13,791 nt of DNA from Pseudomonadota bacterium. Lineage in GTDB: Bacteria > SAR324 > XYD2-FULL-50-16 > JAHJRI01. Of the stretch, positions 409 through 13,791 are shown one piece after another (within the stretch, counting starts at the first letter, position 1; each line of letters begins with the position of its first letter). A model generated the notes under the pieces. It worked only from the letters and a program-made list of their open reading frames with translations. It ran no database searches and was not told the DNA's origin. The stretch spans positions 1-13,791 of the forward strand of contig JAKSDL010000202.1 in the NCBI GenBank assembly GCA_022360105.1. The letters are read 5' to 3'. Made by a program: the position numbers and the translations under genes.

Positions 409-1920
409 TCATTGTTGTGATAACATTTTAATTCTGTTATCGAATGCGATGATGGTGTCTTCAAAGTGGTCTTTGCCAAATAGTTTGTCACCATTAAATT
501 TCTCAATATTAACGGCTTCCATCTCCATCTCAGCAGCAAGTGTCTGGATATCTTTTACAATCCTTTCTTTTTCTGCATTTCTAGCCCCTCGCAGTTTCAT
601 ATCTCGCAAGGTGAGCAGCATCGATCGCAGGGTCTCGTTCCTCCAGGAGGTAAGTTCTTTGAAAAGAGGAACAGGGGGGCAGGGTTTGATATAATATGGG
701 GTGTCTTTTTTTCTTTGCTGGGGAAGCGGATCTCCCTTGTCTTTCAAGGCATCTACAACGTAAGGAAAATTAGAGTCAAAATAGTGATGGTAACCAACAA
801 TCATGCTAAAGAGGCGATAGGGCTCTTCCTTGTCCTCAATTGATTTACGTGCATCGTAAGCTGTCGCATTGTGGGTGGCTATGGCTGTTCCGCTCATGGA
901 TTTTTTGTCCAGGGTTTTATCATCGTTGAGCCAGTGTTCCAACTTTTTCAACTCAGCGCTAATACTGGCTTTTTTAACCAACTGGTTAAACACAGTGACA
1001 ACTTGATGTTCAATGTTGGACGCCATCATGGTCCGACTATCCTTACTACCGGAAATACTCAGTCTTTCAAATAGTTTTGACAACTTTTCTTTAATGTTTT
1101 CAGAAGTTTTCAGCATTGAATAGGTCTGATAAAAATTAACATTGTCCCACTCTTTTTGATTTGGGAATGCGATCAATGTGGCATCAAAGATCAATTGATA
1201 GACAATTTTATCAACCTTATAGTCGAGACTCGCATCAACCGGCTTTTTGTCTTTTTCCGCCGCAAGCGGAACCTCGGCAGGCACGCTTGAGGCTTCCTGA
1301 TTCAATTCTTCCGCCTGTTCCTTGCTAAAATCGTCCTTCAGAATTTTAAAGCCAACCTCTTCCGAATAGATTAGAAACAGATCTTTTCCCGATTCGGCTT
1401 TAACGTGGTAGGTAAGATATTTATTGCCTTCAACAATTTCAGGGGGAGTTTCTACTTGTTCCGAAATATGAGCGACGATCTGCTCCAATGAATCCCTTTC
1501 CGGTTCACAATTGTAGTAGTCAATAATTATTTCTCCGGAATTGTGGCTAAGAATTTCTTCCATGATGTAGGTATCTTCCTGAATGATTGCTTTAGCCTTT
1601 TCGATAAAAGCAAGCCTTTCCTCAAACCCCTGGTAATCGTTATTTAGTTTGTTCTCGTTTTGTATTGTCTCCTTCCTTTTTCTTTCTTCGGCTATCAGCA
1701 TGGTTTCATATTTCTTCCTAACACCGCCGGTATCTACATTTAAAATTGCAGTACCTCCGCCGACAAATTTAGGTGATGGGTTGTTTGAAAGCCCGGCAAT
1801 CAGCTCCTCCAATTTGGCAATTTTACTATCAATGATACTGAGGTCGTGACATCGCTCTACTTTGAATTCCTTTGAAGGTTCGGTTATTTCCCAAACCGGA
1901 GGATTTTCAGAACTATTCAT
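409..1920 (-). CDS. Hypothetical coiled-coil protein, 503 residues
   Basis: I do not recognise this family. The protein is soluble in appearance, with no signal peptide or membrane segment. Residues ~28-50 and ~70-125 are rich in K, E and L with heptad-like spacing (for example ETMLIAEERKRKETIQNENK), which suggests coiled coils. Residues ~200-230 form a low-complexity E/A/P/K linker. The C-terminal half (~235-503) looks globular and helical, includes a P-rich stretch (KPCPPVPLFKELTSW), and ends in another charged helical section. The start is the ATG at 1918-1920; only a weak purine stretch precedes it. Neighbours are unrelated and give no functional clue. The gene is monocistronic by spacing (about 280 bp downstream and 550 bp upstream are free of genes). 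A structural or scaffold role is possible but not shown. Confidence 0.8.
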   Translation of the reverse strand: MNSSENPPVWEITEPSKEFKVERCHDLSIIDSKIAKLEELIAGLSNNPSPKFVGGGTAILNVDTGGVRKKYETMLIAEERKRKETIQNENKLNNDYQGFEERLAFIEKAKAIIQEDTYIMEEILSHNSGEIIIDYYNCEPERDSLEQIVAHISEQVETPPEIVEGNKYLTYHVKAESGKDLFLIYSEEVGFKILKDDFSKEQAEELNQEASSVPAEVPLAAEKDKKPVDASLDYKVDKIVYQLIFDATLIAFPNQKEWDNVNFYQTYSMLKTSENIKEKLSKLFERLSISGSKDSRTMMASNIEHQVVTVFNQLVKKASISAELKKLEHWLNDDKTLDKKSMSGTAIATHNATAYDARKSIEDKEEPYRLFSMIVGYHHYFDSNFPYVVDALKDKGDPLPQQRKKDTPYYIKPCPPVPLFKELTSWRNETLRSMLLTLRDMKLRGARNAEKERIVKDIQTLAAEMEMEAVNIEKFNGDKLFGKDHFEDTIIAFDNRIKMLSQQ

Positions 1921-2472
1921 AGGTCTTTTCTACAATGGTTTCCGTTTACTTCTGCTTAAAAGTTATGACCAATCATTTACCGATAATGGTATTGATTACT
2001 GTTTACAATAGTATACAACATTTGGGGAGAGTCTGAAAAGATTTTGTAAAATCCCATTCCACACCGTTTCCTATAGATGACATTTTCATTTTCATAAATC
2101 CAAATAACAGGTTTTATGTGTCTTTCTTTCACCAATCGGTAAATTCCTGATCAGGTAAGTTGTTTTGCCAACTTTCTCTTCCCGCGAAAGCTGGCCCCAA
2201 CGGCTTTTGCATACGGGATAGGCTGCCTGCTATGTAAGCTTTAAAAAGCTATAAAATGTCTGATATTTTAAGGTTGGTGGATCTGATTTTTTGATTTATC
2301 TTGTAATCAGTATTATCAAATTGACATTTCAAGTACTGTTATTTGTGCCTTATAGCTATTAATTCACAGAGCCCTTGTTAATTCAAAACTGTACTCTATT
2401 TAACACTTGTGAATATGAATTCGTAGATCAAGTAATTATCAATAAGCTGAACGATATAAAGCCATTTTAAAA
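1921..2472. other. 552-bp AT-rich intergenic region between divergent genes
   Basis: No open frame with coding character, tRNA or rRNA-like segment was found here. The region separates the minus-strand coiled-coil gene from the plus-strand acetyltransferase gene, so promoters for both should lie inside it. A short inverted repeat, AGCTTTAAAAAGCT (2237-2250), is present but small. A TTGACA at 2321 has no acceptable -10 element at the usual spacing. Confidence 0.6.
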
Positions 2473-3039
2473 ATGGGAACCGGATCGATCATTGACGAGA
2501 GAGCCCTGGCAGTTGGAGAGCGCGTTTTCATCCGCAAACCTGGTTTTTCTGATGAAAAAGAATTTATGCACAATGTGGCTCGTAGTCGAAAATTCCATTA
2601 TCCATGGATTGTGAATAAAACGAATAACTCTTTTTTTACCGCCTATTTGCTGCGATTTGAACGAGGTAGTGAAGGTCACCTGGTATGTTCCAACGAAACA
2701 GGTGCTATTGTGGGGGTTATCAATATTAACGACATCGCAAGAGGCGCTCTGCAAAGTGGGTATTTAGGTTTTTATTCGTTTTTACCATATGCCCGCAAGG
2801 GTTACTTGTCTGAGGGGTTGCAGCTGATCATCGAGCGGGCGTTTTATACCTTAAACCTGCACCGGCTTGAAGCCAATATTCAACCTCAAAACACAGCATC
2901 GAAAAGTTTTATCATGCGCCATGGATTCAGTCGAGAAGGTTATTCGAGACGTTACCTCAAAGTAAATGGGCGCTGGAAAGACCATGAACGCTGGGCGCTT
3001 TTAAAAGATGAGTGGACAGGCAATAAAACGATTTATTAA
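2473..3039 (+). CDS. GNAT-family N-acetyltransferase, RimJ/RimL type
   Basis: At 188 residues the protein matches the usual RimJ/RimL length. These enzymes transfer an acetyl group from acetyl-CoA to an alpha-amino group, in the founding members that of ribosomal proteins S5 or L12; the substrate here is unknown. The sequence opens with a beta strand (VFIRKPGFSDEKEF) and carries the acetyl-CoA pyrophosphate loop YARKGYLSEGL (~106-116, the R-x-G-Y/H-x-x-E-G/A pattern). It continues with LHRLEANIQPQNTAS (~129-143) and HGFSREGYSRRYLKVNGRWKD (~150-170), the typical C-terminal signature of the subfamily. An in-frame stop directly upstream (2467-2469) leaves the ATG at 2473 as the first possible start, although no clear Shine-Dalgarno sequence precedes it. 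The DUF523 gene begins 39 bp downstream on the same strand, so the two may be co-transcribed. Confidence 0.88.
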   Translation: MGTGSIIDERALAVGERVFIRKPGFSDEKEFMHNVARSRKFHYPWIVNKTNNSFFTAYLLRFERGSEGHLVCSNETGAIVGVININDIARGALQSGYLGFYSFLPYARKGYLSEGLQLIIERAFYTLNLHRLEANIQPQNTASKSFIMRHGFSREGYSRRYLKVNGRWKDHERWALLKDEWTGNKTIY

Positions 3040-3078
3040 CAAAGGTATTCTTTTCACACATTTTAAAACCACTGCAAG

Positions 3079-3567
3079 ATGATGCAAAAAATCCTTATCA
3101 GTTCCTGTCTGCTGGGAGAGCAAGTGAAATACAACGGCGGAGACAATTTGATCCAATCGACACTTTTAGAAAAGTGGCAGGATGAGGAAAGACTTGTAGC
3201 TGTTTGTCCGGAAATGGCCGGCGGTCTGCCGGTTCCCAGAAACCCTGTCGAAATTCAACAAGGGGAAGGAGCAGATGTTTTACTCGGCAAAAGCATTGCT
3301 TTAGACACCAATAACAAAGATGTAACCGACTATTTTATTAAAGGGGCATACGCCGCACTTGAGCTGGCAAAAAAAAACGACATCTCAATTGCAATTCTAA
3401 AGGAACGCAGCCCTTCCTGTGGCAGTAACATGATTTACACAGGAGACTTTTCCGGCAAGTTGAAAGAGGGAAAGGGTGTCACTGCCCGTTTATTGGAACA
3501 GAACGGGATTCGTGTATTCAGCGAGGATCAGTTGGAAGCAGTCGATAACATTTTGGATCAATCTTAA
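3079..3567 (+). CDS. DUF523 family protein
   Basis: This 162-residue cytoplasmic protein shows the complete DUF523 pattern: ILISSCLLGEQVKYNGG near the N-terminus (Cys10), VCPEMAGGLPVPRNPVEI (Cys43), LKERSPSCGSNMIY (Cys114) and GKGVTARLLEQNGIRVFSED near the C-terminus. The three conserved cysteines are all present, which fits a metal- or sulfur-binding role. The family has no role I can state with confidence, though it is widespread. Two adjacent ATG codons (3079 and 3082) could serve as the start; both are plausible and neither has a strong ribosome binding site. The gene follows the acetyltransferase by 39 bp. It ends only 5 bp from the convergent phosphatase gene, so no separate terminator space exists between them. 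Confidence 0.92.
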   Translation: MMQKILISSCLLGEQVKYNGGDNLIQSTLLEKWQDEERLVAVCPEMAGGLPVPRNPVEIQQGEGADVLLGKSIALDTNNKDVTDYFIKGAYAALELAKKNDISIAILKERSPSCGSNMIYTGDFSGKLKEGKGVTARLLEQNGIRVFSEDQLEAVDNILDQS

Positions 3568-3572
3568 TCGAG

Positions 3573-4127
3573 TTATTGCCCCTGCTTCCAGTTCCTGACG
3601 AAATTTATTTGAAGATCATTTTGGGGTGATATCCCGTAAGCTGTCGTACCTTGGGCATGTCTGATGTTATAAAGTTCCTGCAACGCCTCACCACCTTCCA
3701 TACCATGCCGGACCAACCAACATCCGGCCACCGTCCCTGTTCTGCCAAGTCCTGCATAACAATGAAAGTAGACCCTCCTTTGATTTTCCAGATTCATGTC
3801 AATGCAGTTTAGTATATCAATCATTTCCGGTTTTGAAGGAATACCAAAATCCACAATCGGAAAACGGATACACTCAACATTCAATCCTTTTCTCTCACCC
3901 GCATCTTTTAATTCATTGGAATAATCAGGATAATTGCTATGAGCAAAAGTACGTTTCTCAAATTCATCGCTTTCCAGCAGGTTAATGTAGGTTTCTATTC
4001 CGGCATTGAGCAAAGATTCGATTTTCCCGGATGCCTCCATTTGGATTGTTGAAATTGGCAACTCACCAGCTGCGATTTGATCGGGTTTGAGCCAATAACT
4101 GGCCGGAAACGGCTTTTCAGGGTACAT
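3573..4127 (-). CDS. Dual-specificity/tyrosine-type protein phosphatase
   Basis: This 184-residue cytoplasmic protein carries the Cys-dependent phosphatase signature HCYAGLGRTG (~122-131), with nucleophile Cys123 and phosphate-binding Arg129 (the HCxxGxxR loop). Asp93 in FPIVDFGIPS is positioned as the general acid. The N-terminal ASYWLKPDQIAAGELPIS (~9-26) resembles the opening of bacterial DSP-like phosphatases ('W..pg.l.aGeyP'). The reaction is hydrolysis of phosphate from Tyr or Ser/Thr, or possibly from a small phosphorylated substrate; the substrate cannot be read from sequence. The start is the ATG at 4125-4127, preceded only by a weak AGGT. Two palindromes lie about 90-120 bp upstream of the start and could be regulatory. 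The gene is convergent with DUF523. Confidence 0.87.
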   Translation of the reverse strand: MYPEKPFPASYWLKPDQIAAGELPISTIQMEASGKIESLLNAGIETYINLLESDEFEKRTFAHSNYPDYSNELKDAGERKGLNVECIRFPIVDFGIPSKPEMIDILNCIDMNLENQRRVYFHCYAGLGRTGTVAGCWLVRHGMEGGEALQELYNIRHAQGTTAYGISPQNDLQINFVRNWKQGQ

Positions 4128-4490: not shown

Positions 4491-4521
4491 AAAAACCAGC
4501 AACATTGTGCTGCCGGTTTTT
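4491..4521 (-). terminator. Hairpin terminator closing the Rnf/cytochrome operon
   Basis: Read on the minus strand, AAAAACC and AGCA pair with TGCT and GGTTTTT across a short loop, with a three-base bulge, and the 3' arm ends in five T. It starts about 10 bp after the stop codon of the NrfD-like gene, the expected place for an intrinsic terminator. The A/T ends of the stem would let it act on both strands. Confidence 0.6.
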
Positions 4522-4530
4522 ATTAATTGT

Positions 4531-6384
4531 TTATTGTGAAGCTATTGCAGTAGATTCTACAGCAATTGGTAATTTGTGACAGAACAGGCAATTTCCCTCA
4601 CCAACAGGATCTGCCTTTGTGGTTTCACCACGCTGACGGTGGCAAGTCAGACAATTCCCATGCATGGCATGTTGATAACCCGGAGCATTATGATCAAATC
4701 CTTTTGCTTTGTAACTAGCCAAACCTTTCATATTATTTTCATGGCAGTCAAAACAAGCAGCAAAATTTTGCTTCCTGCTGGAAAGATTCAGTTCCCGGAA
4801 AGCTTCCAGATCTGCTGCTGTTTCAAATCTTTCCTCATGATTAACGAGGCTGAACATAGGTGTGGAAGCTTCCATATCGTTATGACAAAGCCTGCAGTTG
4901 GAAGCATTATCTTTGGGTAGATTCAAATGATGACATTTCTCGCAGGTAGCTTCTGCACTGAGCCCATATTCTTTGGCAATGGTTGTTTTATGAAGGGTGT
5001 GATTAAATTCAACGCCGTCGCCATTTACATTGCCATCAATCAAGAGCTTGTCTCTGACGGCATCAATTCCGATCACAGCAGCGCTTACCGGTTGAGCAAT
5101 TGACTTATAAGGTCCTGTTGCCTGGTTTTGAAACAGAAACCAGGTTCCCGGCACCACAATGACCAATGTAGCAACAACTTTTTTAAATCTGGCTCCAAAG
5201 AAATAGGGTACCGCTTCTTCCTTGGACCATAACTTTAAGGGTTCTCCGTCTTCGTGTCCGTGTCCGGCCGGTTCTTTGAAGATATAAAACCGCTCGACAA
5301 AGAAAAAGAACAACAACCCGGCTCCGGCAAGAATGCCGAATCCCAGCAGGAACTCACCAACATTCGGAACATAGATTTCACCTGCACTACGATAATACCC
5401 GATGATGCCTGTGTTTAAACGATGCATGACGATCCCGACCAGTGCAGAACTGGTTCCAATCATCAATCCCCAGATTTTGTTTCGCAAAGCCGGGGTAAAA
5501 TAAATTGCCAGCGGGATAATTACCTGTAGCAGGATTTCCACATGGAAAAGATAAGATTCCCAGGTTACATCGGCACCGAAGACAAATCCCCACTTTCCAT
5601 TGATAGTAAAGTCGGCGATTTTTACAATCAAGTACAATAAGAGCAATCCGGCTGAACCTTTAATCAACCCTGTTAGTATCGACATATTAATTTCCTGACG
5701 ATACAGCCAGGAAAAAATGATCATCAGCAGTACTATCACTGAAAGTCCGGCACCCATGGCCGAAATAAAAAACTCGGGGGGTATCCATAGACTATACCAG
5801 AGCGGATGCAATCTGGTGGGAGAGGCTAAAAACAGCGACCCTAAAGAACTGTGATGCATGGTCGAAAGCGTTATCCCCAAAATCACCACCGGCAGCATGA
5901 TCTCATGAATAAAATGGGTCAGCTTGGGGAAAGGAAATCGTTCAGTGATAAGCGGAAACAATTCAAAAGCTGTGACGCTCCAGTAAACAGAAACACACCA
6001 GAATACTTCAAATAAAAATGAGTGAGGATTCCACATGAAGAAAGGATGCCACCCGCGATGGGGCAGGCCAATATCAAACAACAGCGCAAACAGACTTGAA
6101 CCGTATCCTAAAAAGCCTATGACGATTGAAAAGCGGGCTACTTTTCTATACTTATCCATTTGGAAAATATAGATAATTGCGGCCACAACAAAACCGCTGG
6201 TTGCCAAGGCAGCTCCTGCAACCATGTTGAAAACCTTCCAAAAGCCCCATGGTAACAAGTCTGTCATATTGGTAGCTGCGCCCAACCCATTAACGAAGCG
6301 CCCTACTCCAACCACCATTCCGGCAATCAGGATTACCCACAACGCATCTTTAATTCGATCAAGGATCGGTCTACTATTTACCAT
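4531..6384 (-). CDS. HybB/NrfD-type integral membrane protein with C-terminal penta-heme cytochrome c domain
   Basis: This is a 617-residue protein. Residues ~10-430 form a HybB/NrfD-like membrane domain of about ten helices, with family features such as RFVNGLGAATNMTDLLPWGFW, WNPHSFLFEVFW and IVMHRLNTGI. Such subunits exchange electrons with the quinone pool. After a polar basic stretch (GARFKK) and one last helix (VATLVIVVPGTWFLF), a ~190-residue tail carries five CxxCH heme sites at 481, 497, 544, 578 and 599, plus a c3/c7-like axial-ligand motif FNHTLH. The basic side before the last helix places the tail in the periplasm, as cytochrome c maturation requires. The start is the ATG at 6382-6384 because GGAGG (6391-6395, minus strand) lies six bases before it. 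A longer frame to 6489 exists but would lie inside the upstream gene, which overlaps this one by 11 bp. It is the last gene of the operon. Fusion of the heme tail to NrfD/HybB is unusual. Confidence 0.93.
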   Translation of the reverse strand: MVNSRPILDRIKDALWVILIAGMVVGVGRFVNGLGAATNMTDLLPWGFWKVFNMVAGAALATSGFVVAAIIYIFQMDKYRKVARFSIVIGFLGYGSSLFALLFDIGLPHRGWHPFFMWNPHSFLFEVFWCVSVYWSVTAFELFPLITERFPFPKLTHFIHEIMLPVVILGITLSTMHHSSLGSLFLASPTRLHPLWYSLWIPPEFFISAMGAGLSVIVLLMIIFSWLYRQEINMSILTGLIKGSAGLLLLYLIVKIADFTINGKWGFVFGADVTWESYLFHVEILLQVIIPLAIYFTPALRNKIWGLMIGTSSALVGIVMHRLNTGIIGYYRSAGEIYVPNVGEFLLGFGILAGAGLLFFFFVERFYIFKEPAGHGHEDGEPLKLWSKEEAVPYFFGARFKKVVATLVIVVPGTWFLFQNQATGPYKSIAQPVSAAVIGIDAVRDKLLIDGNVNGDGVEFNHTLHKTTIAKEYGLSAEATCEKCHHLNLPKDNASNCRLCHNDMEASTPMFSLVNHEERFETAADLEAFRELNLSSRKQNFAACFDCHENNMKGLASYKAKGFDHNAPGYQHAMHGNCLTCHRQRGETTKADPVGEGNCLFCHKLPIAVESTAIASQ

Positions 6385-7237
6385 CTTTCCCCTCCTTTCC
6401 ACTTGACTTGTCAGCCGCTTCTTTTTCCCGGGCCAGTAGTTTTTTTCTGCGATACAACCAGATACCTGATAATCCGGCTGAAACAGCAACGAACTGCACC
6501 GGTGTCACCCAAATCCAGGGTTCCACCAAAGCTGGCACTGACTTTTTCGTCAATTGAGGCAATCTCATTTTTTCAAATTGATCTTTTGTCGGGATATTCA
6601 GAACGTCTCCTATGGGGATGTCGGAGAGATACATTACGGAAGTTCCCCCAAATTCGTGCTCCCCGTAAATATGGTTGACATATTTTCCAGGATTTTCCTT
6701 GAGCCTTTTTTTAGCGATCTTTAAAAGATTTTCCCTGGTATCAAAAATGGTCGCTCCCGTAGGGCAAGCCGACACACATGCGGGTTTTCCGCCAGCTACC
6801 CGGCATTCATGATTCATTTTGCACTTACGAATGTAAGGCAAAGGTTTGTCATATTCATAACGAGGAATAGAGAAAGGGCAAGCCAGCATGCAATAGCGGC
6901 AACCAATGCACATACCTGCGTCATATTCAACCGCTCCGTCAGGGCTTTTAGTAAAGGCTCCGACCAGGCACGCTGCAGAGCAAGAAGGATCCAGGCAATG
7001 CAAACAATGTTTTCGCACCATATGCCATTTTCCGGTTTCCTCATTTTTGGTTTTTACAATGGAAGTAAAGCGATTTCCGGACAAACCGTCTTTGGCCTTG
7101 AAATATGACAGGAAATCGCGAGGCAGTTTGTTTTTCTTAACGCAACCCTCAACACATCTCTCACAACCGATGCATTTGGTAACATCAGTCAGCATGCCCT
7201 TTATTTTTGATGAATCGCTTGTTTGTGTACTGCTCAT
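6374..7237 (-). CDS. HybA/HmcB-like four-cluster [4Fe-4S] ferredoxin subunit with C-terminal membrane anchor
   Basis: This is a 287-residue electron-transfer subunit. Four cysteine sets fit four [4Fe-4S] clusters: C22/25/28/32, C78/81/86/90, C110/113/116/120 and C139/145/154/158, the arrangement of HybA, HmcB and DsrO-type proteins. A single hydrophobic helix at ~241-262 is followed by RRKKLLAREK and a basic tail. By the family pattern it wires the multiheme cytochrome to the NrfD-type subunit encoded directly downstream, with which it overlaps by 11 bp. The cytochrome gene ends 18 bp upstream. The N-terminus begins MSSTQTSDSSKIKG and has no twin-arginine or Sec signal. An in-frame stop, that of the cytochrome gene, rules out a longer start. 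This is odd because the basic C-terminal flank would place the cluster domain in the periplasm. The ribosome binding site (GAGGG, 11 bases from the ATG) is loosely spaced. Confidence 0.93.
   Translation of the reverse strand: MSSTQTSDSSKIKGMLTDVTKCIGCERCVEGCVKKNKLPRDFLSYFKAKDGLSGNRFTSIVKTKNEETGKWHMVRKHCLHCLDPSCSAACLVGAFTKSPDGAVEYDAGMCIGCRYCMLACPFSIPRYEYDKPLPYIRKCKMNHECRVAGGKPACVSACPTGATIFDTRENLLKIAKKRLKENPGKYVNHIYGEHEFGGTSVMYLSDIPIGDVLNIPTKDQFEKMRLPQLTKKSVPALVEPWIWVTPVQFVAVSAGLSGIWLYRRKKLLAREKEAADKSSGKEGKDGK
6391..6395 (-). promoter_or_regulatory. Ribosome binding site that fixes the start of the NrfD-like gene
   Basis: GGAGG on the minus strand lies six bases upstream of the ATG at 6384. 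This supports that start over the 35-residue longer open frame, whose extra residues are polar and unlike the family. Confidence 0.75.
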
Positions 7238-7255
7238 ATTGCGGTTTTCCCTCTT

Positions 7256-8728
7256 TTACAGTTTAAAATACTCTTCCCAGGCTTGAGGTCCTATTTCGAG
7301 TTTCTGATGACAATTGGTACAAATGGTTTGATAGATTTCATCCCTGGATTTGGCATCAGTACCTTGAGCAACGCTTCCAGCGACGGGACCTTCCGGTCCA
7401 TGGCATTTACTGCAGTTTTGAATATGGCCTGCCGTTCCTGTCCAGGCTTTGCCGACTTTTTCGGCTGTTACATAAAGCCCGTCCTTAATGAGTGTATTGT
7501 GATGACAATTTCTGCAGGATAACGATGTGTCCACGGCATGGAATTTATGATCCCACCAGAAGGCGCCATCCGGTCCTTCATATTTGTAATACCCACCTGT
7601 TACATCGTTTACAAGCATACTAGCCAGGGTCGTCAAACCAACTTTCTCCTTGGTATGACATTCCAGGCAGGTTTGATCCAAGGAAGCCTTGAGATCCAAT
7701 TCCACATCCGGATCTTTGCCATGACAACTGCTACATGCAACCATAGGTGCACCGGGAGCCTCCGTATGATGACAGGTCTGACATTCAACCGTACCAAATT
7801 CTCCATGTCTCCTATGATCCCAGGCTACAGTACCAAAGTTGGGGATCTGTATTCTCGAAGGATCAGGTTTATGGCAATCCGTGCAAATTCCCGGAGATGC
7901 CAGGTTCAGCTTGGATTCTTCCGAATTGTGGCAGGTAGCACAGCGTTGATGAACAGCTTGTTCCAGACTTGGATTGGTCACGTCAAAATCGACCTCCAGC
8001 CCTTTGTGACATTCAGTACAGCCAACGTTGTCTTCTTCAGGATTAAATTCCACATGGCATTCCACACATTGACCGTGTTTATAGTCGGCATGATCCTTAA
8101 ATCCTGTAGCAATCTCCAATCCCTTGGCTATAACCGGTTTGTGACAAGTACCGCACGCCCGGTAATCAGCTTCCGTTTTTGCTTCAAAGTCCTTGTGGTG
8201 ACAAGTTACACAATCGTCATCAAATTCCTGGTCTTTATCCATTTCCAGTTTTCTGGAATGGAGAGTATGATCCCACACTACCATACCATGCGGACCGGTG
8301 AATGTTTGTTGATGACAATCCCGACAAATGACCGGGCCCTGATTCATGGCCTTGTGACATCCCATGCAGCTTGCATGAAGAGCCGTCATCGGTGGAGGTC
8401 CATTTTCTCCTTCATAAATCACAGGCGTCACTTCAGCGAACAACTCCGGAGTGATCAAGCTTTCAACGTTAGTAAGAGGAGTATGACATTCACTGCAAGG
8501 TTTTAAATCCATTGCACCTTGCTTTTCCGTATGATGGCAAACATTGCAGTTTGAAATTTCTTTCATACGGGCATGCAATTCATGATTCCAGGAAACATCA
8601 CCGAATCGATTCTCTAAAACATTATCCGGTTCCCGTTCGGGAGGCACCATCATTGCCACACCACCCAGCAAAACCAGTAGCAGAGCAATTCCCAACAGCT
8701 TTTTGATATCGACTATTCTACCTTTCAA
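7256..8728 (-). CDS. Sixteen-heme c-type cytochrome (HmcA-like, class III repeats)
   Basis: This 490-residue protein has 16 CxxCH heme-attachment sites, with first Cys at 61, 78, 121, 135, 173, 192, 221, 237, 263, 282, 316, 332, 354, 405, 439 and 470. One hydrophobic segment (~11-28) directs export and has no clear cleavage site, so it may remain as an anchor. A W-(D/N)-H motif recurs at ~47, 152, 303 and 392, each followed by another His and then a CxxCHH, marking four tandem cytochrome c3/c7-like units. Heme number and length resemble HmcA of Desulfovibrio, also a 16-heme protein working with an HmcB ferredoxin and an NrfD-type HmcC. The start is a TTG (8726-8728), since no ATG or GTG is available before the signal segment and AAGGA lies six bases upstream. 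Predicted role: periplasmic electron wire between Rnf and the downstream FeS/NrfD pair. Homology to HmcA proper is inferred from layout, not alignment. Confidence 0.93.
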   Translation of the reverse strand: MKGRIVDIKKLLGIALLLVLLGGVAMMVPPEREPDNVLENRFGDVSWNHELHARMKEISNCNVCHHTEKQGAMDLKPCSECHTPLTNVESLITPELFAEVTPVIYEGENGPPPMTALHASCMGCHKAMNQGPVICRDCHQQTFTGPHGMVVWDHTLHSRKLEMDKDQEFDDDCVTCHHKDFEAKTEADYRACGTCHKPVIAKGLEIATGFKDHADYKHGQCVECHVEFNPEEDNVGCTECHKGLEVDFDVTNPSLEQAVHQRCATCHNSEESKLNLASPGICTDCHKPDPSRIQIPNFGTVAWDHRRHGEFGTVECQTCHHTEAPGAPMVACSSCHGKDPDVELDLKASLDQTCLECHTKEKVGLTTLASMLVNDVTGGYYKYEGPDGAFWWDHKFHAVDTSLSCRNCHHNTLIKDGLYVTAEKVGKAWTGTAGHIQNCSKCHGPEGPVAGSVAQGTDAKSRDEIYQTICTNCHQKLEIGPQAWEEYFKL

Positions 8729-8761
8729 TTCCGTTCCTTTGTTGAATGCTTGACAGAAGGA

Positions 8762-8782
8762 AGGTGTATCCCACTTACACCT
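8762..8782 (-). other. Intercistronic hairpin in front of the cytochrome gene
   Basis: AGGTGTA (8762-8768) and TACACCT (8776-8782) form a perfect 7-bp stem with a 7-base loop, extendable by two GC pairs past one bulged base. It sits in the 95-bp gap between rnfB and the cytochrome gene and is not followed by a T-run, so it is more likely an mRNA stability or processing element than a terminator. Confidence 0.45.
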
Positions 8783-8803
8783 CCCGAGTTTAGTTTTTTA
8801 ACT

Positions 8804-8829
8804 GAATAACTTCCCAACAAGGGTTATTC
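8804..8829 (-). other. Hairpin overlapping the rnfB stop codon
   Basis: GAATAAC (8804-8810) and GTTATTC (8823-8829) form a perfect 7-bp stem around a 12-base loop. The TAA stop of the rnfB fusion lies in the stem. The following minus-strand sequence has an A-run rather than a T-run, which argues against a terminator. It may protect the 3' end of the upstream rnf message. Confidence 0.4.
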
Positions 8830-10962
8830 AGGAGAAACCACCAGTAACTCTTCCACCTTTTCAGTCATACTCTTTTCAGAATAAAACTTGTCTTTCTGGT
8901 TGTCAGAGAAATAACACAGCGTACCGCAACGCATGCACCGATCTGCTTCCGCCTGCATCAATTCGGGCGTAACTGTTAAATCAACTTCATCAAATGTTTT
9001 GATTCTCTCTTTAACGGGAAGTTCAGGCTGTTCAACCTTTGGCTTTCTCGCCACGCCATCCAGTGGAACATCGCCTGATTCAGGAACTCGTTGCGGAGCT
9101 TTGTATGTACCGTAAGGATGAGTGAGATCCTGTCCGTTCAGGAACCGATGAATGGACCGGGCGGCCCTGCGACCAGTTCCTACGGCGTCAATCAATAGTG
9201 CGGGACCACTCCACAAGTCTCCTCCGGTGAATACGTGGGGGATATCGGATTGTAAAGTTTCCTCATCCGCCTCAATGGTGTCCCAACGGGTCAGTTTCAT
9301 ACCTCGTTCTTTCAGATCATCGGTATACCAATCAGTTAATGGCCGCTGACCAATGGCAGAAATCACTACGTCCACATCAATTGTTACTTCCGAACCTTCA
9401 ATCGGAACAGGCCGTCTTCTACCGGAAGCATCCGGCTCACCGAGTTCCATGCGCAGGTACTCGATTTGCTTGAGAACACCGTTTTCATCTCCTATCAGGC
9501 GAGTCGGTGCAGCAAGCAGTTCATATTTGATACCTTCATGCTCGGAAGCCACAATTTCCACCTCGTTGGCCGGCATTTCGTTTCTGGTTCTTCGGTATAA
9601 CAAGGTGACTTCGCTAGCTCCTTGCCTTAAAGAACTTCGGCAGGCATCCATGGCAGTATTACCGCCACCGACAACCACCACTCGTTTTCCCTTAAGATCA
9701 ACATCAATCCCCAGTTCTCTTTTTTGCAGAAATTCGGTTCCCTTCCAGACGCCTTCCAGCTCTTCGCCTTCACAGCGCAAAGAAGTATTATCCCACGCTC
9801 CCATGGCCATGAGGATAGCATCGAATTCATCTTCCATGCCTTGAATACTTATATCTGTCCCCAGGGATTTATTGCACTCTTCCTTAACTCCCATATCCAG
9901 TATCTGCTTGATCTCAAAATTCAATACTTTCTTGGGAAGTCTGTATTCCGGGATTCCATAGCGAAGCATGCCACCCAGCTCCGGTTTGGAATCGTAGATG
10001 GTGATATCATGTCCCATTCTACGGAGATAGTAAGCTGCGGAGAGACCACAAGGCCCTCCTCCAACGATGGCAACCTTCTTTCCCGTATCTGGCAAGATCA
10101 TTGGTTTGAGTGGTTCGGGAAGATTCATTTCCCAATCGGCCACAAAGCGCTTAATGTAATTGTGATGCACCGGTTCGTCTTCAATAGCGACTCTTCGGCA
10201 ACCCACTTCACAGGGAGCCGGGCAAACGCGACCGCAAATCAACGGCAGAGGATTTCGCTCCTTGATCAGGGCAATGGCACCGGCAAAATCACCTTCTTTG
10301 GCCAATTGCACATAGCCTGGAATATCGATTTGGGCCGGACATAATTGTTTGCAAGGTGGCAGGCATTCATCTTCTTTGTTAAAATGAAAGAGTCTATCCG
10401 TCATATTGTATACGTTGATGACACCTGTAGGACAAACACGCTCACAATTACCACATCCCACGCAACGATCCGGAATGACTTCAGGTACACCTTCCTCTCC
10501 CATCTCCAGGGCATCAAACGGACAGCTAGCTACGCACGTACCAAGACTCAGGCAGCCGACTTTGCAGACCAGATCCCCCCCGTGCAGGGCAAACATGGCT
10601 CGACAATCGTTGATGCCTTCGTAATGATACTTTGGAACAGCCCGATAGCCGCCTTCACAATAATGTGTTGCGACTTTTGGTTCCTGGAAGCCAATTTCTC
10701 CACCCATTACTTTCGCCACTGCAGCAGTAGTAGTATCTCCACCTGCGATACAAGCGTTAACCGGCGCTTTACCTTCCACAATTGCTTCAGCACAGGCTGT
10801 ACAACCTGTATATCCGCATCCACCGCAATTTGCTCCCGGAAGGGCATCTTCAACATCTGTAATTCTTGGATCCACTTCCACATGAAACACCTTTGCCGCG
10901 ACCGCCAGGACAACCGAAGCGCTGAGTCCCACACCCAGCATGACAATTGAAGGTACTAACAT
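8824..10962 (-). CDS. rnfB: RnfB fused to a GltD/NfnB-like FAD, NAD(P)H oxidoreductase
   Basis: This is a 712-residue fusion. Residues 1-~190 are RnfB: an N-terminal membrane helix (~5-25), the RnfB cluster motif NCGGCGYTGC (Cys46, 49, 54, with Cys71), then two ferredoxin-type clusters (C133/137/143/147 and C167/170/173/177). Residues ~197-615 match the small subunit of glutamate synthase and NfnB: an N-terminal cysteine domain (C200/204/208 and C243/247/251/255), an FAD Rossmann loop GGGPCG (~301-306), and a nicotinamide loop GGGNTAMD (~432-439). The latter is followed by YRRTR (456-460), whose arginines favour NADPH. A C-terminal CxxCxxxC (C676/679/683) may hold a further cluster. RnfB normally takes electrons from ferredoxin and is usually about 170-330 residues. 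The fusion would let NAD(P)H exchange electrons at the same point. The start ATG (10960-10962) follows GAGGGAAAGG. The gene lies 189 bp after rnfA. Confidence 0.95.
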   Translation of the reverse strand: MLVPSIVMLGVGLSASVVLAVAAKVFHVEVDPRITDVEDALPGANCGGCGYTGCTACAEAIVEGKAPVNACIAGGDTTTAAVAKVMGGEIGFQEPKVATHYCEGGYRAVPKYHYEGINDCRAMFALHGGDLVCKVGCLSLGTCVASCPFDALEMGEEGVPEVIPDRCVGCGNCERVCPTGVINVYNMTDRLFHFNKEDECLPPCKQLCPAQIDIPGYVQLAKEGDFAGAIALIKERNPLPLICGRVCPAPCEVGCRRVAIEDEPVHHNYIKRFVADWEMNLPEPLKPMILPDTGKKVAIVGGGPCGLSAAYYLRRMGHDITIYDSKPELGGMLRYGIPEYRLPKKVLNFEIKQILDMGVKEECNKSLGTDISIQGMEDEFDAILMAMGAWDNTSLRCEGEELEGVWKGTEFLQKRELGIDVDLKGKRVVVVGGGNTAMDACRSSLRQGASEVTLLYRRTRNEMPANEVEIVASEHEGIKYELLAAPTRLIGDENGVLKQIEYLRMELGEPDASGRRRPVPIEGSEVTIDVDVVISAIGQRPLTDWYTDDLKERGMKLTRWDTIEADEETLQSDIPHVFTGGDLWSGPALLIDAVGTGRRAARSIHRFLNGQDLTHPYGTYKAPQRVPESGDVPLDGVARKPKVEQPELPVKERIKTFDEVDLTVTPELMQAEADRCMRCGTLCYFSDNQKDKFYSEKSMTEKVEELLVVSPE

Positions 10963-11104
10963 CCTTTCCCTCTTGATACCTTGTGATCAAAAAACCGTAT
11001 CATCTAATTCCGGTTTGGATTTAATTTCCCGAAAGGGAATCTTTTAAGCAAACATGAGGTTGCTCGCTGATACTCACGTCAGCTGTCGGGTTTTCAGTTT
11101 TCTC

Positions 11105-11133
11105 CCCATGAAAGAATAGATCTCATTCACGGG
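11105..11133 (-). other. Hairpin in the 189-bp rnfA-rnfB gap
   Basis: On the minus strand CCCGTGAA (11126-11133) can pair with TTCATGGG (11105-11112), giving eight pairs including one G-U, with a 13-base loop. A second small stem, TTCCC/GGGAA, lies at 11026-11039 nearer the rnfB start. The gap is long compared with the 2-13 bp spacing of the other rnf genes and contains no open frame. No T-run follows either stem. Confidence 0.35.
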
Positions 11134-11151
11134 TACGAGCATGAAATTAGT

Positions 11152-11727
11152 TTAAACCATTCCCTTGAACGCAAAGAAACACAGAGCCATTAGTCCGGCT
11201 GTGACCAAACCAATACCTGTTCCTTCCAGTGGTTTGGGAATACGAGTGATTTCAAATCGTTCCCTGATTCCGGCAAAAAGAATTAGGGCTAACCCGAATC
11301 CGAAAGCGGAAGCCACGGAAAACACAATGGTTTCCAGCAAATCAAACTCTTCCTGAATATTGATTATCGCTGAACCCAGCACCGCACAATTGGTTGTGAT
11401 CAAGGGCAGAAAAATGCCCAACGACTTGTAAAGTACTGGAATTGCCTTTCGCAAAAACAGTTCTACAAACTGCACCAGGGTGGCTATTATAAGAATAAAC
11501 GCCAGCGTTCGAATAAAAGTTATTTCCAGCCATTCCAACAAATACCAGTTGAGTACCCAGGTAATCACCCCGGCCAGTGTGAGCACAAAAACAACGGCTG
11601 CCGACATACCGATGGCAGTGTCCATTTTTTTGGAAACCCCGAGAAACGGGCATTGCCCCAGGAATTTTGCCAGCAGAATATTATTGATAAAGATGGCGGC
11701 TATGATCAGTTCAAAGTAGTGAGTCAT
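11152..11727 (-). CDS. rnfA: RnfA, integral membrane subunit of the Rnf complex
   Basis: This 191-residue protein has about six membrane helices and is of normal length. RnfA and RnfE are homologous, inverted partners that hold a [2Fe-2S] cluster in the membrane, passing electrons from RnfB on the cytoplasmic side to the RnfG flavin outside. The family cysteines are present: Cys26 in FLGQCPFLGVSK and Cys114 in LPLITTNCAVLG. Further conserved pieces are the N-terminal INNILLAKFLG and FGFGLALILFAGIRER. The ATG at 11725-11727 follows AAGGAGCG at good spacing, within the intergenic space after rnfE (13 bp). The E-A order and tight spacing fit the canonical rnf operon. Confidence 0.97.
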   Translation of the reverse strand: MTHYFELIIAAIFINNILLAKFLGQCPFLGVSKKMDTAIGMSAAVVFVLTLAGVITWVLNWYLLEWLEITFIRTLAFILIIATLVQFVELFLRKAIPVLYKSLGIFLPLITTNCAVLGSAIINIQEEFDLLETIVFSVASAFGFGLALILFAGIRERFEITRIPKPLEGTGIGLVTAGLMALCFFAFKGMV

Positions 11728-11740
11728 ATTGCTTCGCTCC

Positions 11741-12343
11741 TTATCTTTCGACCAGTCGACCGAGAATGTTTATAACTCCAAGCAGTAACCCCAATACAAC
11801 AAAGGCTCCCGGCGCCTGCTGCAAAAAGTCAAAGGGTTCAGCAATGAACTGGGCATCCCCAAACAAGAGTCCTAGTTTACCGGCACCAAAAACCTCACGA
11901 ATAATACCGATCAAAGTGAGGGAGATGGTAAATCCGAGTCCCATACCCATCCCGTCTGCGAATGATCTGGCCACGCCGTTCTTTCTGGCAAAGGCTTCTG
12001 CCCGTCCCAGGATGATACAATTCACCACGATTAGCGGAATAAAAAGGCCCAGACTTTCCGAAAGTTGGAAGAAATAGGCTTTGGTAATCATTTCCACGCA
12101 AACCACAAAGGTGGCAATCACGACGATATAGCACGCTACCCGCACCTGATCAGGTATAAGATTGCGCAGGGCTGAGATCAATACATTGGAGCAAACCAAC
12201 ACAAAAGTAGCCGAAAGCCCCATTCCCAGACCGTTTTCCATGGTGGTGGTTACCGCTAAAACCGGACACAATCCTAAAACCAGCCGGAAAGGAGGGAGTT
12301 CTTTCCATAATCCTTTGGTAAATTCGCTAAAAATCGAATTCAT
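11741..12343 (-). CDS. rnfE: RnfE, integral membrane subunit of the Rnf complex
   Basis: This 200-residue protein has about six membrane helices. It pairs with RnfA to bind the intramembrane [2Fe-2S] cluster; the expected cysteines are Cys26 in LGLCPVLAVTT and Cys109 in IPLIVVNCIILGRAEAFA. The C-terminal half contains GMGMGLGFTISLTLIGIIRE, typical of RnfE/NqrD. The ATG (12341-12343) is preceded by AAAGGA and lies 12 bp after rnfG. Where many RnfE proteins have 'NPvf' before the first cluster motif, this one reads ELPPFR, a small departure. Otherwise it is ordinary and should be functional. Confidence 0.96.
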   Translation of the reverse strand: MNSIFSEFTKGLWKELPPFRLVLGLCPVLAVTTTMENGLGMGLSATFVLVCSNVLISALRNLIPDQVRVACYIVVIATFVVCVEMITKAYFFQLSESLGLFIPLIVVNCIILGRAEAFARKNGVARSFADGMGMGLGFTISLTLIGIIREVFGAGKLGLLFGDAQFIAEPFDFLQQAPGAFVVLGLLLGVINILGRLVER

Positions 12344-12355
12344 ATGACAAGTCCT

Positions 12356-12976
12356 TTATCGTGTGAGAGCGATTTTAATCTGCTCCTGATGTTTTTCGTA
12401 ATACTCTTTGGCCTGTTCTGCGGCAAGGGCCACGGCCCTGCATGATATTGTGGCTCCAGCAATGGCATCAATGTTACCTCCGTCCTTTTTTACTTTTAAT
12501 ATCGCGTTTGCAGGCAAGGTTTTGAACTGATCAACGAAGATCTGCTCGGTGACACGGGTTCCGACTCCGGGTGTTTCAGCCATTGTTGTGATGCCTATTC
12601 CCACTATGCTGCTATCTTCAATCTTAAATCCCATCATCACACCCAGATCACCGCCGTAACCGGGGCCGAATTTTTCAAGCGCCACTGCATAAGGAGCACC
12701 ATCCTTTTTGATAACAAAAACCAGCAACGGTTCCTTTTCACCCAGGTCAACGGACAGCTTTTCCGCCAGCAACTCAGTTTCCAGGGCTGTTTTTTGTTCT
12801 TGATCCAGCTGCCCCACAAGACCTTCATAAATGGTTGCGACAGCAGGAATTTTCTTGAATTTGAGAACGTTGTTTTCCGCCGTCTCATAGGTCAGTTCGT
12901 TTAATGCGCCCAGCGCTAACCCGCTAACGAGGGTAATCGCTGACAGTACTATCACCATACGAATATAGTTTGCCAT
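12356..12976 (-). CDS. rnfG: RnfG, extracytoplasmic FMN-carrying subunit of the Rnf complex
   Basis: This 206-residue protein has a single N-terminal membrane helix (~7-25) and an extracytoplasmic FMN-binding domain. FMN is attached covalently through a phosphoester to a Thr in the 'SGAT.T/S' motif by the ApbE transferase. Here the motif reads DAIAGATIS (170-178) with Thr176 as the acceptor and Ala in place of the usual Ser/Thr two positions before the second Ala. The family segments GPGYGGDLGVMMGF and TMAETPGVGTRV (~104-142) are intact. In the related Nqr/Rnf path this flavin takes electrons from the RnfA/E cluster, and here it is the likely donor to the periplasmic cytochrome. The start ATG is two bases after the rnfD stop, so translation is probably coupled. 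Confidence 0.96.
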   Translation of the reverse strand: MANYIRMVIVLSAITLVSGLALGALNELTYETAENNVLKFKKIPAVATIYEGLVGQLDQEQKTALETELLAEKLSVDLGEKEPLLVFVIKKDGAPYAVALEKFGPGYGGDLGVMMGFKIEDSSIVGIGITTMAETPGVGTRVTEQIFVDQFKTLPANAILKVKKDGGNIDAIAGATISCRAVALAAEQAKEYYEKHQEQIKIALTR

Positions 12977-12978
12977 AA

Positions 12979-13791
12979 TCAGGTAGCCATCTTAATTACT
13001 TTAGGTTTAATACGATCCAACAACGGAGATACGACATTCATTAACAACACGGCAAAGGGAACCGCATCCGGCCAAACACCAAACGCACGGATCAAGATGA
13101 TCAGAAATCCGATTCCGATTCCGTAAATCCACATGGCCAGTTTATTAGCCGGTGAGCTGGTTGCGTCTGTCGCCAGAAAGAATGCCGCAAGAAATACATG
13201 CCCGGAAAAAAACTGTTCACCGATTCCTCCGCCTCCCAGGCTTTCCTGCATCAGGAAACCAAACAGCAAAGTACCGATAATAACGCCGAGCGTGATTTCA
13301 AACCTGATATAACCGGTCATCAACAGACCGATTCCTCCCAGGATGGTCATTACGATTACAGCAGTATTGAACCCTGCGATACTGGCTGTGCCTATGGGAT
13401 ATACATATTGGGGCCAGGAAAGATAAACAACCAGCCATCCAACCAGGGCAGGGTGCATAGGGTAACCACCAATACCACCAAACACCTGTTTTGCCATAAA
13501 AATAGCAACAGCAACTGCAACCAACATAATCCAGGCAGGTACAGAAGGAGGCATTAACAAGGCAATGATCAACCCCATCAAAGCACCATGACCGTTCGTT
13601 GCATAATAAGGCTGACGCATCAAGACTTGACAGGCATATTCGATCAGAAGCCCCAAACCCATTCCAAAGAGCACCGTTCCAAATACTCCGGAAAACCACA
13701 AAAATCCGGTGTCCAATCCCATTTCAAGAGTCAGTGTTCTCAATACACTACTAACTGAAGTGATTGACGCATCCAGTTCAACAGCTTGTGA
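12979..13791 (-). CDS. rnfD: RnfD, membrane subunit of the Rnf complex (N-terminus beyond right edge; lacks the FMN loop)
   Basis: The frame is open to the right edge: codons upstream of a TTG at 13743 continue in frame without a stop, so the true start is outside and 270 residues are visible. Family segments are clear: GALMGLIIALLMPPSVPAWI, AKQVFGGIGGYPMHPALVGW (matching 'KqlyGGLGqNPFNPA'), AAFFLATDATSSPANK and PDAVPFAVLLMNVVSPLLDR. RnfD normally carries a covalent FMN on Thr in a 'SGAT/SQATP' loop between the second and third of these segments. Here the stretch between YLSWPQ and the next helix is only about ten residues (YVYPIGTASIAGF) and has no such motif. The protein is therefore shorter than E. 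coli RsxD by roughly the length of that loop. The C-terminus is intact. It is the first visible gene of the operon, and rnfC is expected upstream. Confidence 0.94.
   Translation of the reverse strand, partial: SQAVELDASITSVSSVLRTLTLEMGLDTGFLWFSGVFGTVLFGMGLGLLIEYACQVLMRQPYYATNGHGALMGLIIALLMPPSVPAWIMLVAVAVAIFMAKQVFGGIGGYPMHPALVGWLVVYLSWPQYVYPIGTASIAGFNTAVIVMTILGGIGLLMTGYIRFEITLGVIIGTLLFGFLMQESLGGGGIGEQFFSGHVFLAAFFLATDATSSPANKLAMWIYGIGIGFLIILIRAFGVWPDAVPFAVLLMNVVSPLLDRIKPKVIKMAT

What the first reader, a model, noticed from the sequence alone, without database searches (positions are those of the whole stretch)
4531..13791. Rnf complex and Hmc/NrfD-type cytochrome module in one operon
Seen: rnfD-G-E-A-B is followed on the same strand by a 16-heme cytochrome, a four-cluster ferredoxin subunit and a NrfD/HybB protein, with gaps of 2-189 bp and one terminal hairpin. 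Known: Rnf couples ferredoxin to NAD+ with ion transport; multiheme cytochromes next to rnf are known in Desulfovibrio and Methanosarcina; HmcA-B-C links periplasmic cytochromes to the membrane. Inferred: this operon encodes a hybrid machine that moves electrons between ferredoxin/NAD(P)H and quinone through a 21-heme periplasmic wire, with ion translocation at Rnf.
Basis: partly seen in the sequence, partly recalled or inferred. Interest (0 to 1): 0.8.

Follow-up and report, generated by a model that had tools for sequence, protein, structure and literature searches.

The report
Cytochrome-wired Rnf with dead NAD arm
This gene cluster encodes an Rnf ion pump that seems to have been rewired: it appears to have lost the parts that normally hand electrons to NAD, has gained an NAD(P)H-type input domain, and sits next to cytochrome genes with 21 heme motifs and a membrane protein that could carry the electrons to quinone instead.

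Summary
In detail: rnfD-G-E-A-B, a 16-CXXCH cytochrome, a 16-Cys ferredoxin-like protein and an NrfD protein with five CXXCH lie on one strand before a strong hairpin. Linkage recurs: genome G001 carries the set with a 43%-identical cytochrome, 23 RnfB/cytochrome pairs share a contig length, 58 of 69 homologues keep exactly 16 CXXCH. In a census of 65 Rnf clusters both flavin motifs are lost in one clade (RnfD 53 of 53, RnfC 50 of 50 readable) and kept in the other 12; a multiheme cytochrome is near 46 of 53 against 1 of 12. Best reading: ferredoxin/NAD(P)H electrons leave through RnfG into the cytochrome and NrfD to quinone, with ion pumping at RnfA/E. Large RnfB and NADH-less RnfC are already described (Desulfobacula toluolica type); I found no mention of the RnfD loss or the Hmc-like module. 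The window's own RnfC, quinone, direction and co-transcription are unproven.

The parts
12979..13791 (-). rnfD, 5' end beyond the window; covalent-FMN threonine loop (A-T-P) deleted
   Evidence: Pfam PF03116 182.8 bits; alignment with 12 Rnf and 8 Nqr-type clusters that all keep A-T-P
12356..12976 (-). rnfG, periplasmic FMN subunit; FMN-threonine motif GATIS kept
   Evidence: Pfam FMN_bind 55.2 bits; motif; N-terminal hydrophobic helix
11741..12343 (-). rnfE; Cys26 and Cys109 kept (their role as RnfA/E [2Fe-2S] ligands is recalled)
   Evidence: TIGR01948 over cut-off; Cys positions, conserved in 72 and 67 of 72 clusters
11152..11727 (-). rnfA; Cys26 and Cys114 kept (their role as RnfA/E [2Fe-2S] ligands is recalled)
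   Evidence: TIGR01943 over cut-off; Cys positions, conserved in 72 of 72 clusters each
8824..10962 (-). rnfB fused to an NfnB/GltD-like FAD/NAD(P)H flavoprotein (residues about 199-690)
   Evidence: rnfB TIGR01944 80 bits over cut-off 68.7; PRK12771 model 504.7 bits (cut-off 516); PDB relatives
7256..8728 (-). 16-CXXCH c3/c7-type cytochrome with N-terminal signal or anchor helix
6374..7237 (-). HybA/HmcB-like protein with 16 Cys, a C-terminal hydrophobic segment and no Tat signal
4531..6384 (-). NrfD/HmcC-like membrane protein with an extra C-terminal helix and a 5-CXXCH domain
   Evidence: PF03916 43.5 bits; HmcC model 229 bits; 15 of 16 homologues with 5 CXXCH; helices (the latter a poor model)
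4491..4521 (-). terminator-like hairpin after nrfD
   Evidence: z -5.1

Best explanation
A rewired Rnf. Cytoplasmic electrons (ferredoxin at RnfB, NAD(P)H at the flavoprotein fused to RnfB) run through RnfB clusters to the RnfA/E [2Fe-2S] centre in the membrane, driving ion export there, and on to the FMN of RnfG on the periplasmic face. In a normal Rnf they would return through two flavins of RnfD and the FMN of RnfC to NAD+; here that arm has lost flavin sites. RnfG therefore passes electrons to the 16-heme cytochrome, and from there through the 5-heme domain and the NrfD protein to (mena)quinone. Shown: gene content, recurrent linkage, loss of the RnfD FMN loop in the window, no Pfam-detectable FMN/NADH domain in the RnfC of the relative G001, retention of RnfG and RnfA/E motifs. 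Inferred: RnfC of the window organism itself, cytochrome as acceptor, quinone as end point, ion pumping, direction.
For: Linkage in G001 (on two contigs, taken as one split operon) and 23 shared-contig pairs. RnfD A-T-P motif absent in the window and in 53 of 53 clusters of the clade, present in 12 of 12 other Rnf and 8 of 8 Nqr-type clusters; RnfC GxGGxxFxT motif absent in 50 of 50 readable, present in 12 of 12. Pfam Complex1_51K 161-183 bits in four canonical RnfC against none in G001, L003 and L018 and 26-43 bits in L015, L017, L019. RnfG GAT kept in the window and G001; over the added Desulfovibrionaceae-type regions in 33 of 35. G001 carries a second, unfused Rnf with all motifs (L097). 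A. woodii structure places FMN on RnfD Thr156 between RnfG and RnfC (PMC11889175, passages). Precedent: M. acetivorans Rnf passes electrons to a cytochrome and methanophenazine and does not react with NAD(P) (PMC4023990, PMC11024163, passages).
Against: The co-loss is probably one phylogenetic event (clade support 100), so the counts are not independent. The losses are graded: RnfC of L017 and L019 still scores over Pfam's cut-off for the FMN-binding domain (35.1 and 43.3 against 31.2); L011, L017 and L019 have a Thr at the RnfD site without the Ala, and L003 has SAT one residue off the aligned place. RnfG has GAS, not GAT, in L017, L018, L181 and L190. In Desulfovibrio alaskensis the decaheme gene co-transcribed with rnf was not needed when Rnf was (PMC4215793, passages); that species' RnfC/D could not be tested (0 of 288). 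Seven of 53 clade clusters show no multiheme cytochrome in the stretch held, L011 and L019 with 22 kb. In G001 rnfB and the cytochrome are parted by an opposite-strand rseC-like gene. RnfC keeps both [4Fe-4S] motifs, so it may still carry electrons; for M. acetivorans a RnfB-RnfC-RnfD-RnfG order has been proposed. The FeS subunit has no export signal.
Confidence: 0.55

Rival explanations
1. Same wiring run backwards: quinol, or periplasmic electrons, feed the cytochrome, and an ion gradient drives them uphill through RnfG and RnfB to reduce NADP+ and ferredoxin for biosynthesis.
For: The GltD-type domain binds NADP(H) in Nfn and Stn; G001 holds a second canonical Rnf, so a division of labour is possible; Rnf runs in reverse elsewhere (PMC11889175, abstract listing and passages).
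Against: No sequence feature found here sets the direction either way.
Confidence: 0.2
2. The cytochrome is an outlet to periplasmic or extracellular acceptors; the NrfD module feeds quinol electrons into the same cytochrome, so both supply an external acceptor.
For: A multiheme cytochrome next to Rnf (MmcA) reduces external acceptors (PMC11024163, passages); the cytochrome model is a chain of c3/c7 modules like periplasmic carriers.
Against: No outer-membrane conduit was recognised among the window's ORFs that were scanned; the genome is not held, so this is weak.
Confidence: 0.15
3. Two separate complexes that happen to be neighbours: Rnf with an unknown acceptor, and an Hmc-like complex that serves other periplasmic enzymes.
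For: dhcA is dispensable where Rnf is needed in D. alaskensis; opposite-strand rseC-like gene between rnfB and cytochrome in G001; in 35 fused-RnfB loci no FeS or NrfD match was found at E 1e-5 and the cytochrome matched only weakly in 10 (45-54 bits).
Against: Linkage of this RnfB group with one cytochrome family in 23 contig pairs and in G001; the flavin-site losses call for another outlet.
Confidence: 0.1

Closest known systems
Desulfobacula toluolica Tol2-type Rnf (Rnf2 of Desulfococcus multivorans; PMC5109826, passages)
   Same: RnfB of about 700 aa with NAD-binding sites; [quoted passage not shown] authors say the acceptor/donor must be other than NAD and is unknown.
   Different: The passages seen do not mention the RnfD FMN site or a 16-heme/NrfD module; in 35 related loci no FeS/NrfD module matched.
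Methanosarcina acetivorans Rnf with MmcA (PMC4023990, PMC11024163, passages)
   Same: Rnf with a linked multiheme cytochrome, RnfG proposed as donor to it, no NAD(P) reaction.
   Different: MmcA is a heptaheme related to the OTR family; here a 16-CXXCH c3/c7-type protein plus FeS and NrfD subunits and a GltD-type domain on RnfB.
Hmc complex of Desulfovibrio
   Same: 16-heme cytochrome, HmcB-like FeS protein and HmcC-like NrfD protein, side by side.
   Different: All three score far below the equivalog cut-offs (90.9 of 400, 238 of 420, 229 of 550); NrfD carries five CXXCH of its own; no further Hmc-type gene lies between nrfD and the hairpin.
Desulfovibrionaceae rnf operon with dhcA/CbcC-type cytochrome (PMC4841214, PMC11434368, passages)
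   Same: Cytochrome beside rnf; RnfC and RnfD flavin motifs lost in the family of G185.
   Different: Cytochrome before rnfC in the five loci checked, with 4-10 CXXCH; many members have an unfused RnfB.
Na+-NQR as a descendant of Rnf (PMC4014512, passages)
   Same: RnfC homologue NqrA lost its NAD, FMN and FeS sites, and a new NADH input module was recruited.
   Different: NqrB keeps the FMN threonine (8 of 8 Nqr-type clusters); here RnfB stays, RnfC keeps its clusters and the RnfD site is lost.

Membership tests
Rnf complex | RnfA, B, D, E, G subunits encoded together | tested here: met
   (A, E, B over NCBIfam cut-off; G and D clear but below it)
Rnf complex | RnfC present | tested here: inconclusive
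   off the window; present but divergent in relative G001, L099 498-1961 (RnfC_N only 21.3 bits, below cut-off)
Ferredoxin:NAD+ oxidoreductase (canonical Rnf) | FMN/NADH site in RnfC | tested here: inconclusive
   window RnfC not held; motif absent in G001 and in 50 of 50 readable clusters of the clade, but L017 and L019 still pass Pfam's cut-off for the FMN-binding domain
Ferredoxin:NAD+ oxidoreductase (canonical Rnf) | covalent-FMN threonine in RnfD | tested here: not met
   loop deleted in the window and G001
D. toluolica-type Rnf | large RnfB with pyridine-nucleotide flavoprotein domain | tested here: met
   one clade with the other fused clusters, support 100
D. toluolica-type Rnf | RnfC without NADH and SLBB domains | tested here: inconclusive
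   met in the relative G001, window RnfC not held; L019 of the clade keeps an SLBB match (38.3 bits)
Hmc complex | HmcA, HmcB, HmcC equivalogs | tested here: not met
   scores below cut-offs
HmcA-like fold | chain of c3-type modules with 16 hemes | tested here: inconclusive
MmcA | heptaheme OTR-related cytochrome | tested here: not met
   16 CXXCH and c3/c7 Pfam families
Rnf complex | ion translocation | not testable with these tools
   none

The most novel reading that the evidence does not exclude
A whole branch of bacterial Rnf, including the window's and the Desulfovibrionaceae-type ones, is not a ferredoxin:NAD+ oxidoreductase at all: the flavin return arm (RnfD FMN, RnfC FMN/NADH) was lost, and electrons leave through RnfG to periplasmic multiheme cytochromes. 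The window group completes it with a dedicated route to quinone. Unfused Desulfovibrionaceae-type members, with no GltD-like gene found in the stretches held, would then have no NAD(P) site and be pure ferredoxin:cytochrome c ion pumps, against their usual annotation. (Lowered from 0.5 to 0.45 on checking, because L003, L011, L017 and L019 keep traces of the sites.)
Probability: 0.45. Interest if true: 0.85.

Novelty: new variant of a known kind. Interest (0 to 1): 0.7.

Why it matters
Rnf in sulfate reducers is described as a ferredoxin:NAD(H) oxidoreductase in the papers whose passages I saw. If the flavin arm to NAD is dead in this branch, energy budgets built on it change, and the acceptor left open for the D. 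toluolica-type Rnf becomes testable: look in the periplasm. The window adds a bacterial counterpart of the archaeal Rnf-cytochrome route, with a ready-made possible link to quinone.

Tried and rejected
Rejected: that the GltD fusion by itself explains the lost RnfC/RnfD motifs. In the family of G185, clusters with an unfused RnfB show the same losses: 14 of 16 unfused, all but L207 and L208, which have no cytochrome in the stretch held and keep both motifs. One of the 14 (L181) is probably a fused RnfB cut by its 6.3-kb contig; another (L206) shows no cytochrome.

Rejected: strict membership in Hmc (cut-offs). The NrfD model was poor (pLDDT 58.8) and served only for a helix count; no fold search was made with it.

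Led nowhere: the window's genome is not held. Surveys around G001: RnfB at E 1e-150 in 1 of 149 genomes of its phylum, the cytochrome in 2 of 12 of its order and the same 2 of 41 of its class, so the set is rare there. In G154 rnf and the cytochrome module lie on pieces divided by 100-N gaps, so adjacency there is not shown. A search for the D. alaskensis rnf operon by a published primer found nothing in the loci held and 0 of 288 genomes. Ten literature searches gave no listing that names Rnf with a 16-heme/NrfD module or the RnfD loss; only open-licence papers are held, and the D. toluolica paper itself was not seen; a 2011 comparison of sulfate reducers was not held. Papers were seen as listings, abstracts and passages only, none in full.
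Full report
Observation. On the minus strand the window holds rnfD (cut by the window end), rnfG, rnfE, rnfA, rnfB, a cytochrome with 16 CXXCH, a ferredoxin-like protein with 16 cysteines, and an NrfD-family protein with five CXXCH. The NrfD start is better placed at 6384, giving 617 aa as in its homologue P0190. A hairpin at 4491-4521 follows nrfD (z -5.1).

RnfB is 712 aa: an RnfB part with its FeS domain and clusters (about residues 1-195), then an FAD/NAD(P)H flavoprotein of the NfnB/GltD family (PRK12771 model 504.7 bits, just below its cut-off of 516; PDB relatives include NfnI, NfnA and 8oh5_C; 8oh5_C is taken to be StnC from its 1172 aa). The second Rossmann motif GGGNTAMDACR...YRR matches these relatives, and the Stn paper calls its GltD-like domain NADPH-binding (PMC10482914, abstract and passages). 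Nucleotide preference here is inferred. Proteins with such an N-terminal part are common: 733 at E 0.001 or better in the length class searched, the best 120 listed.

Recurrent linkage. G001 (its contig titled Acidobacteria bacterium bin100110) carries rnfC-D-G-E-A and RnfB up to residue 277 on one contig, and RnfB from residue 328, the 16-CXXCH cytochrome (43% identity), FeS and NrfD with 5 CXXCH on another; I take these as one operon split by the assembly. Among database proteins, 23 RnfB/cytochrome pairs have the same longest-contig length, five of them on contigs of 4.1-8.2 kb; 6 cytochrome/NrfD pairs do too (77 of 120, 66 of 69 and 16 of 16 rows entered). Equal contig length is a proxy, not a map. 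58 of 69 cytochrome homologues have exactly 16 CXXCH, and 15 of 16 NrfD homologues exactly 5. Against a strict operon: in G001 an RseC/MucC-family gene (73.6 bits) lies on the opposite strand between rnfB and the cytochrome. In 35 fused-RnfB loci no FeS or NrfD match was found and the cytochrome matched only weakly in 10, so the module belongs to a subgroup.

Flavin sites. In A. woodii the electrons run RnfB, RnfA/E, RnfG FMN, RnfD FMN (on Thr156) and riboflavin, RnfC clusters and FMN, NAD+ (PMC11889175, passages). In the window RnfD the loop that carries this threonine is gone; RnfG keeps GATIS. RnfA Cys26 and Cys114 and RnfE Cys26 are conserved in 72 of 72 clusters and RnfE Cys109 in 67 of 72 (their ligand role is recalled). 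In G001's linked RnfC, Pfam finds the C-terminal 4Fe-4S motifs but neither RnfC_N (21.3 bits, below cut-off) nor the Nuo51 FMN-binding domain. The same genome has a second Rnf with unfused RnfB and all motifs (L097).

Census. I collected clusters, from 15 genomes searched for RnfD (regions) and from 59 genomes of the family of G185 (30 of 59 with a match, 39 places; 38 regions fetched, the 39th being L015). L144 was dropped from the RnfD count because an N run cuts it. Eight clusters without an RnfB were set aside as Nqr-type (my label): all eight keep A-T-P in the RnfD homologue, and the five readable RnfC homologues lack the flavin motif, as known for NqrA. Of the remaining 65, 53 lack A-T-P and 12 have it (two of these, L133 and L143, with no RnfB seen). 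RnfC lacks the flavin motif in 50 of 50 readable of the first set (window, L016 and L036 not readable) and has it in 12 of 12 of the second (L133 only with the looser motif, the stricter one missed it). Traces remain: L011, L017 and L019 have the Thr without the Ala, L003 has SAT one residue off, and RnfC of L017 and L019 still passes Pfam's cut-off for the FMN-binding domain (35.1 and 43.3 against 31.2; canonical ones 161-183; L015 25.6; L003, L018 and L099 none). In RnfG the threonine is a serine in L017, L018, L181 and L190. An ORF with 4 or more CXXCH lies in the stretch held in 46 of 53 against 1 of 12, and that one (L133) is across a scaffold gap. The stretches differ in length (two of the 12, L097 and L143, hold under 7 kb). 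The seven without are L005, L011, L016, L019, L036, L099 and L206; for L099 the other contig of its genome carries the cytochrome.

Phylogeny. On RnfA+RnfE, 54 minus clusters (L144 included) and 18 others (10 Rnf, 8 Nqr-type; L133 and L143 not in the tree) are split with support 100. Window, G001 and G154 group with support 100. So the losses are probably one old event kept since; the counts must not be read as independent trials. In this unrooted tree the unfused Desulfovibrionaceae-type members lie among fused ones (branch supports there range widely, some under 50), which fits later loss of the fusion; no GltD-like ORF lies in the stretches held for them.

Mechanism. With the return arm lost and RnfG intact, a periplasmic acceptor is the simplest outlet, and this cluster supplies a 16-CXXCH cytochrome and an NrfD protein whose extra C-terminal helix would place five hemes beyond the membrane (the model is poor, and NrfD quinone chemistry is recalled). 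The cytochrome model (pLDDT 80.4) matches c7/c3 modules. The archaeal precedent is the M. acetivorans Rnf-MmcA route. The main evidence against is the dispensability of the co-transcribed decaheme in D. alaskensis, though other periplasmic cytochromes could stand in. RnfC keeps both cluster motifs, so a partial role for it is open.

Known and new. The large RnfB and the NADH-less RnfC are in print for D. toluolica and D. multivorans; replacement of rnfB by an FAD-dependent oxidoreductase is noted in Desulfovibrionaceae; and loss of the RnfC sites is known from NqrA. I found no mention of the RnfD loss or of the 16-heme/NrfD module in ten searches of an open-licence library. I rate it a new variant of a known kind.

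Noticed in passing
L176, L177, L188, L191-L193, L198, L199, L201, L203-L206: Thirteen unfused Desulfovibrionaceae-type Rnf clusters lack the RnfC and RnfD flavin motifs and show no GltD-like gene in the stretch held, so no NAD(P) site is recognisable.
   Followed up: partly
L020 1170-1646 minus: RseC/MucC-family gene on the opposite strand between rnfB and the 16-heme cytochrome in G001.
   Followed up: partly
window 6374-7237: HybA/HmcB-like FeS protein without a Tat signal, also in G001 and G154, yet with a C-terminal hydrophobic segment followed by arginines; its side of the membrane is unclear.
   Followed up: partly
L035, L065: RnfB-GltD-like fusion proteins beside a NuoF-like frame with the motif RGRGGAGFPTG.
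   Followed up: no
window 11002-11151 minus: 150 of the 189 nt between rnfA and rnfB fold better than shuffles (z -2.85).
   Followed up: no
window 409-4127: Neighbours: an ORF of 503 aa with no Pfam match, a GNAT acetyltransferase, a 2-thiouracil desulfurase-family protein and a dual-specificity-type phosphatase.
   Followed up: no
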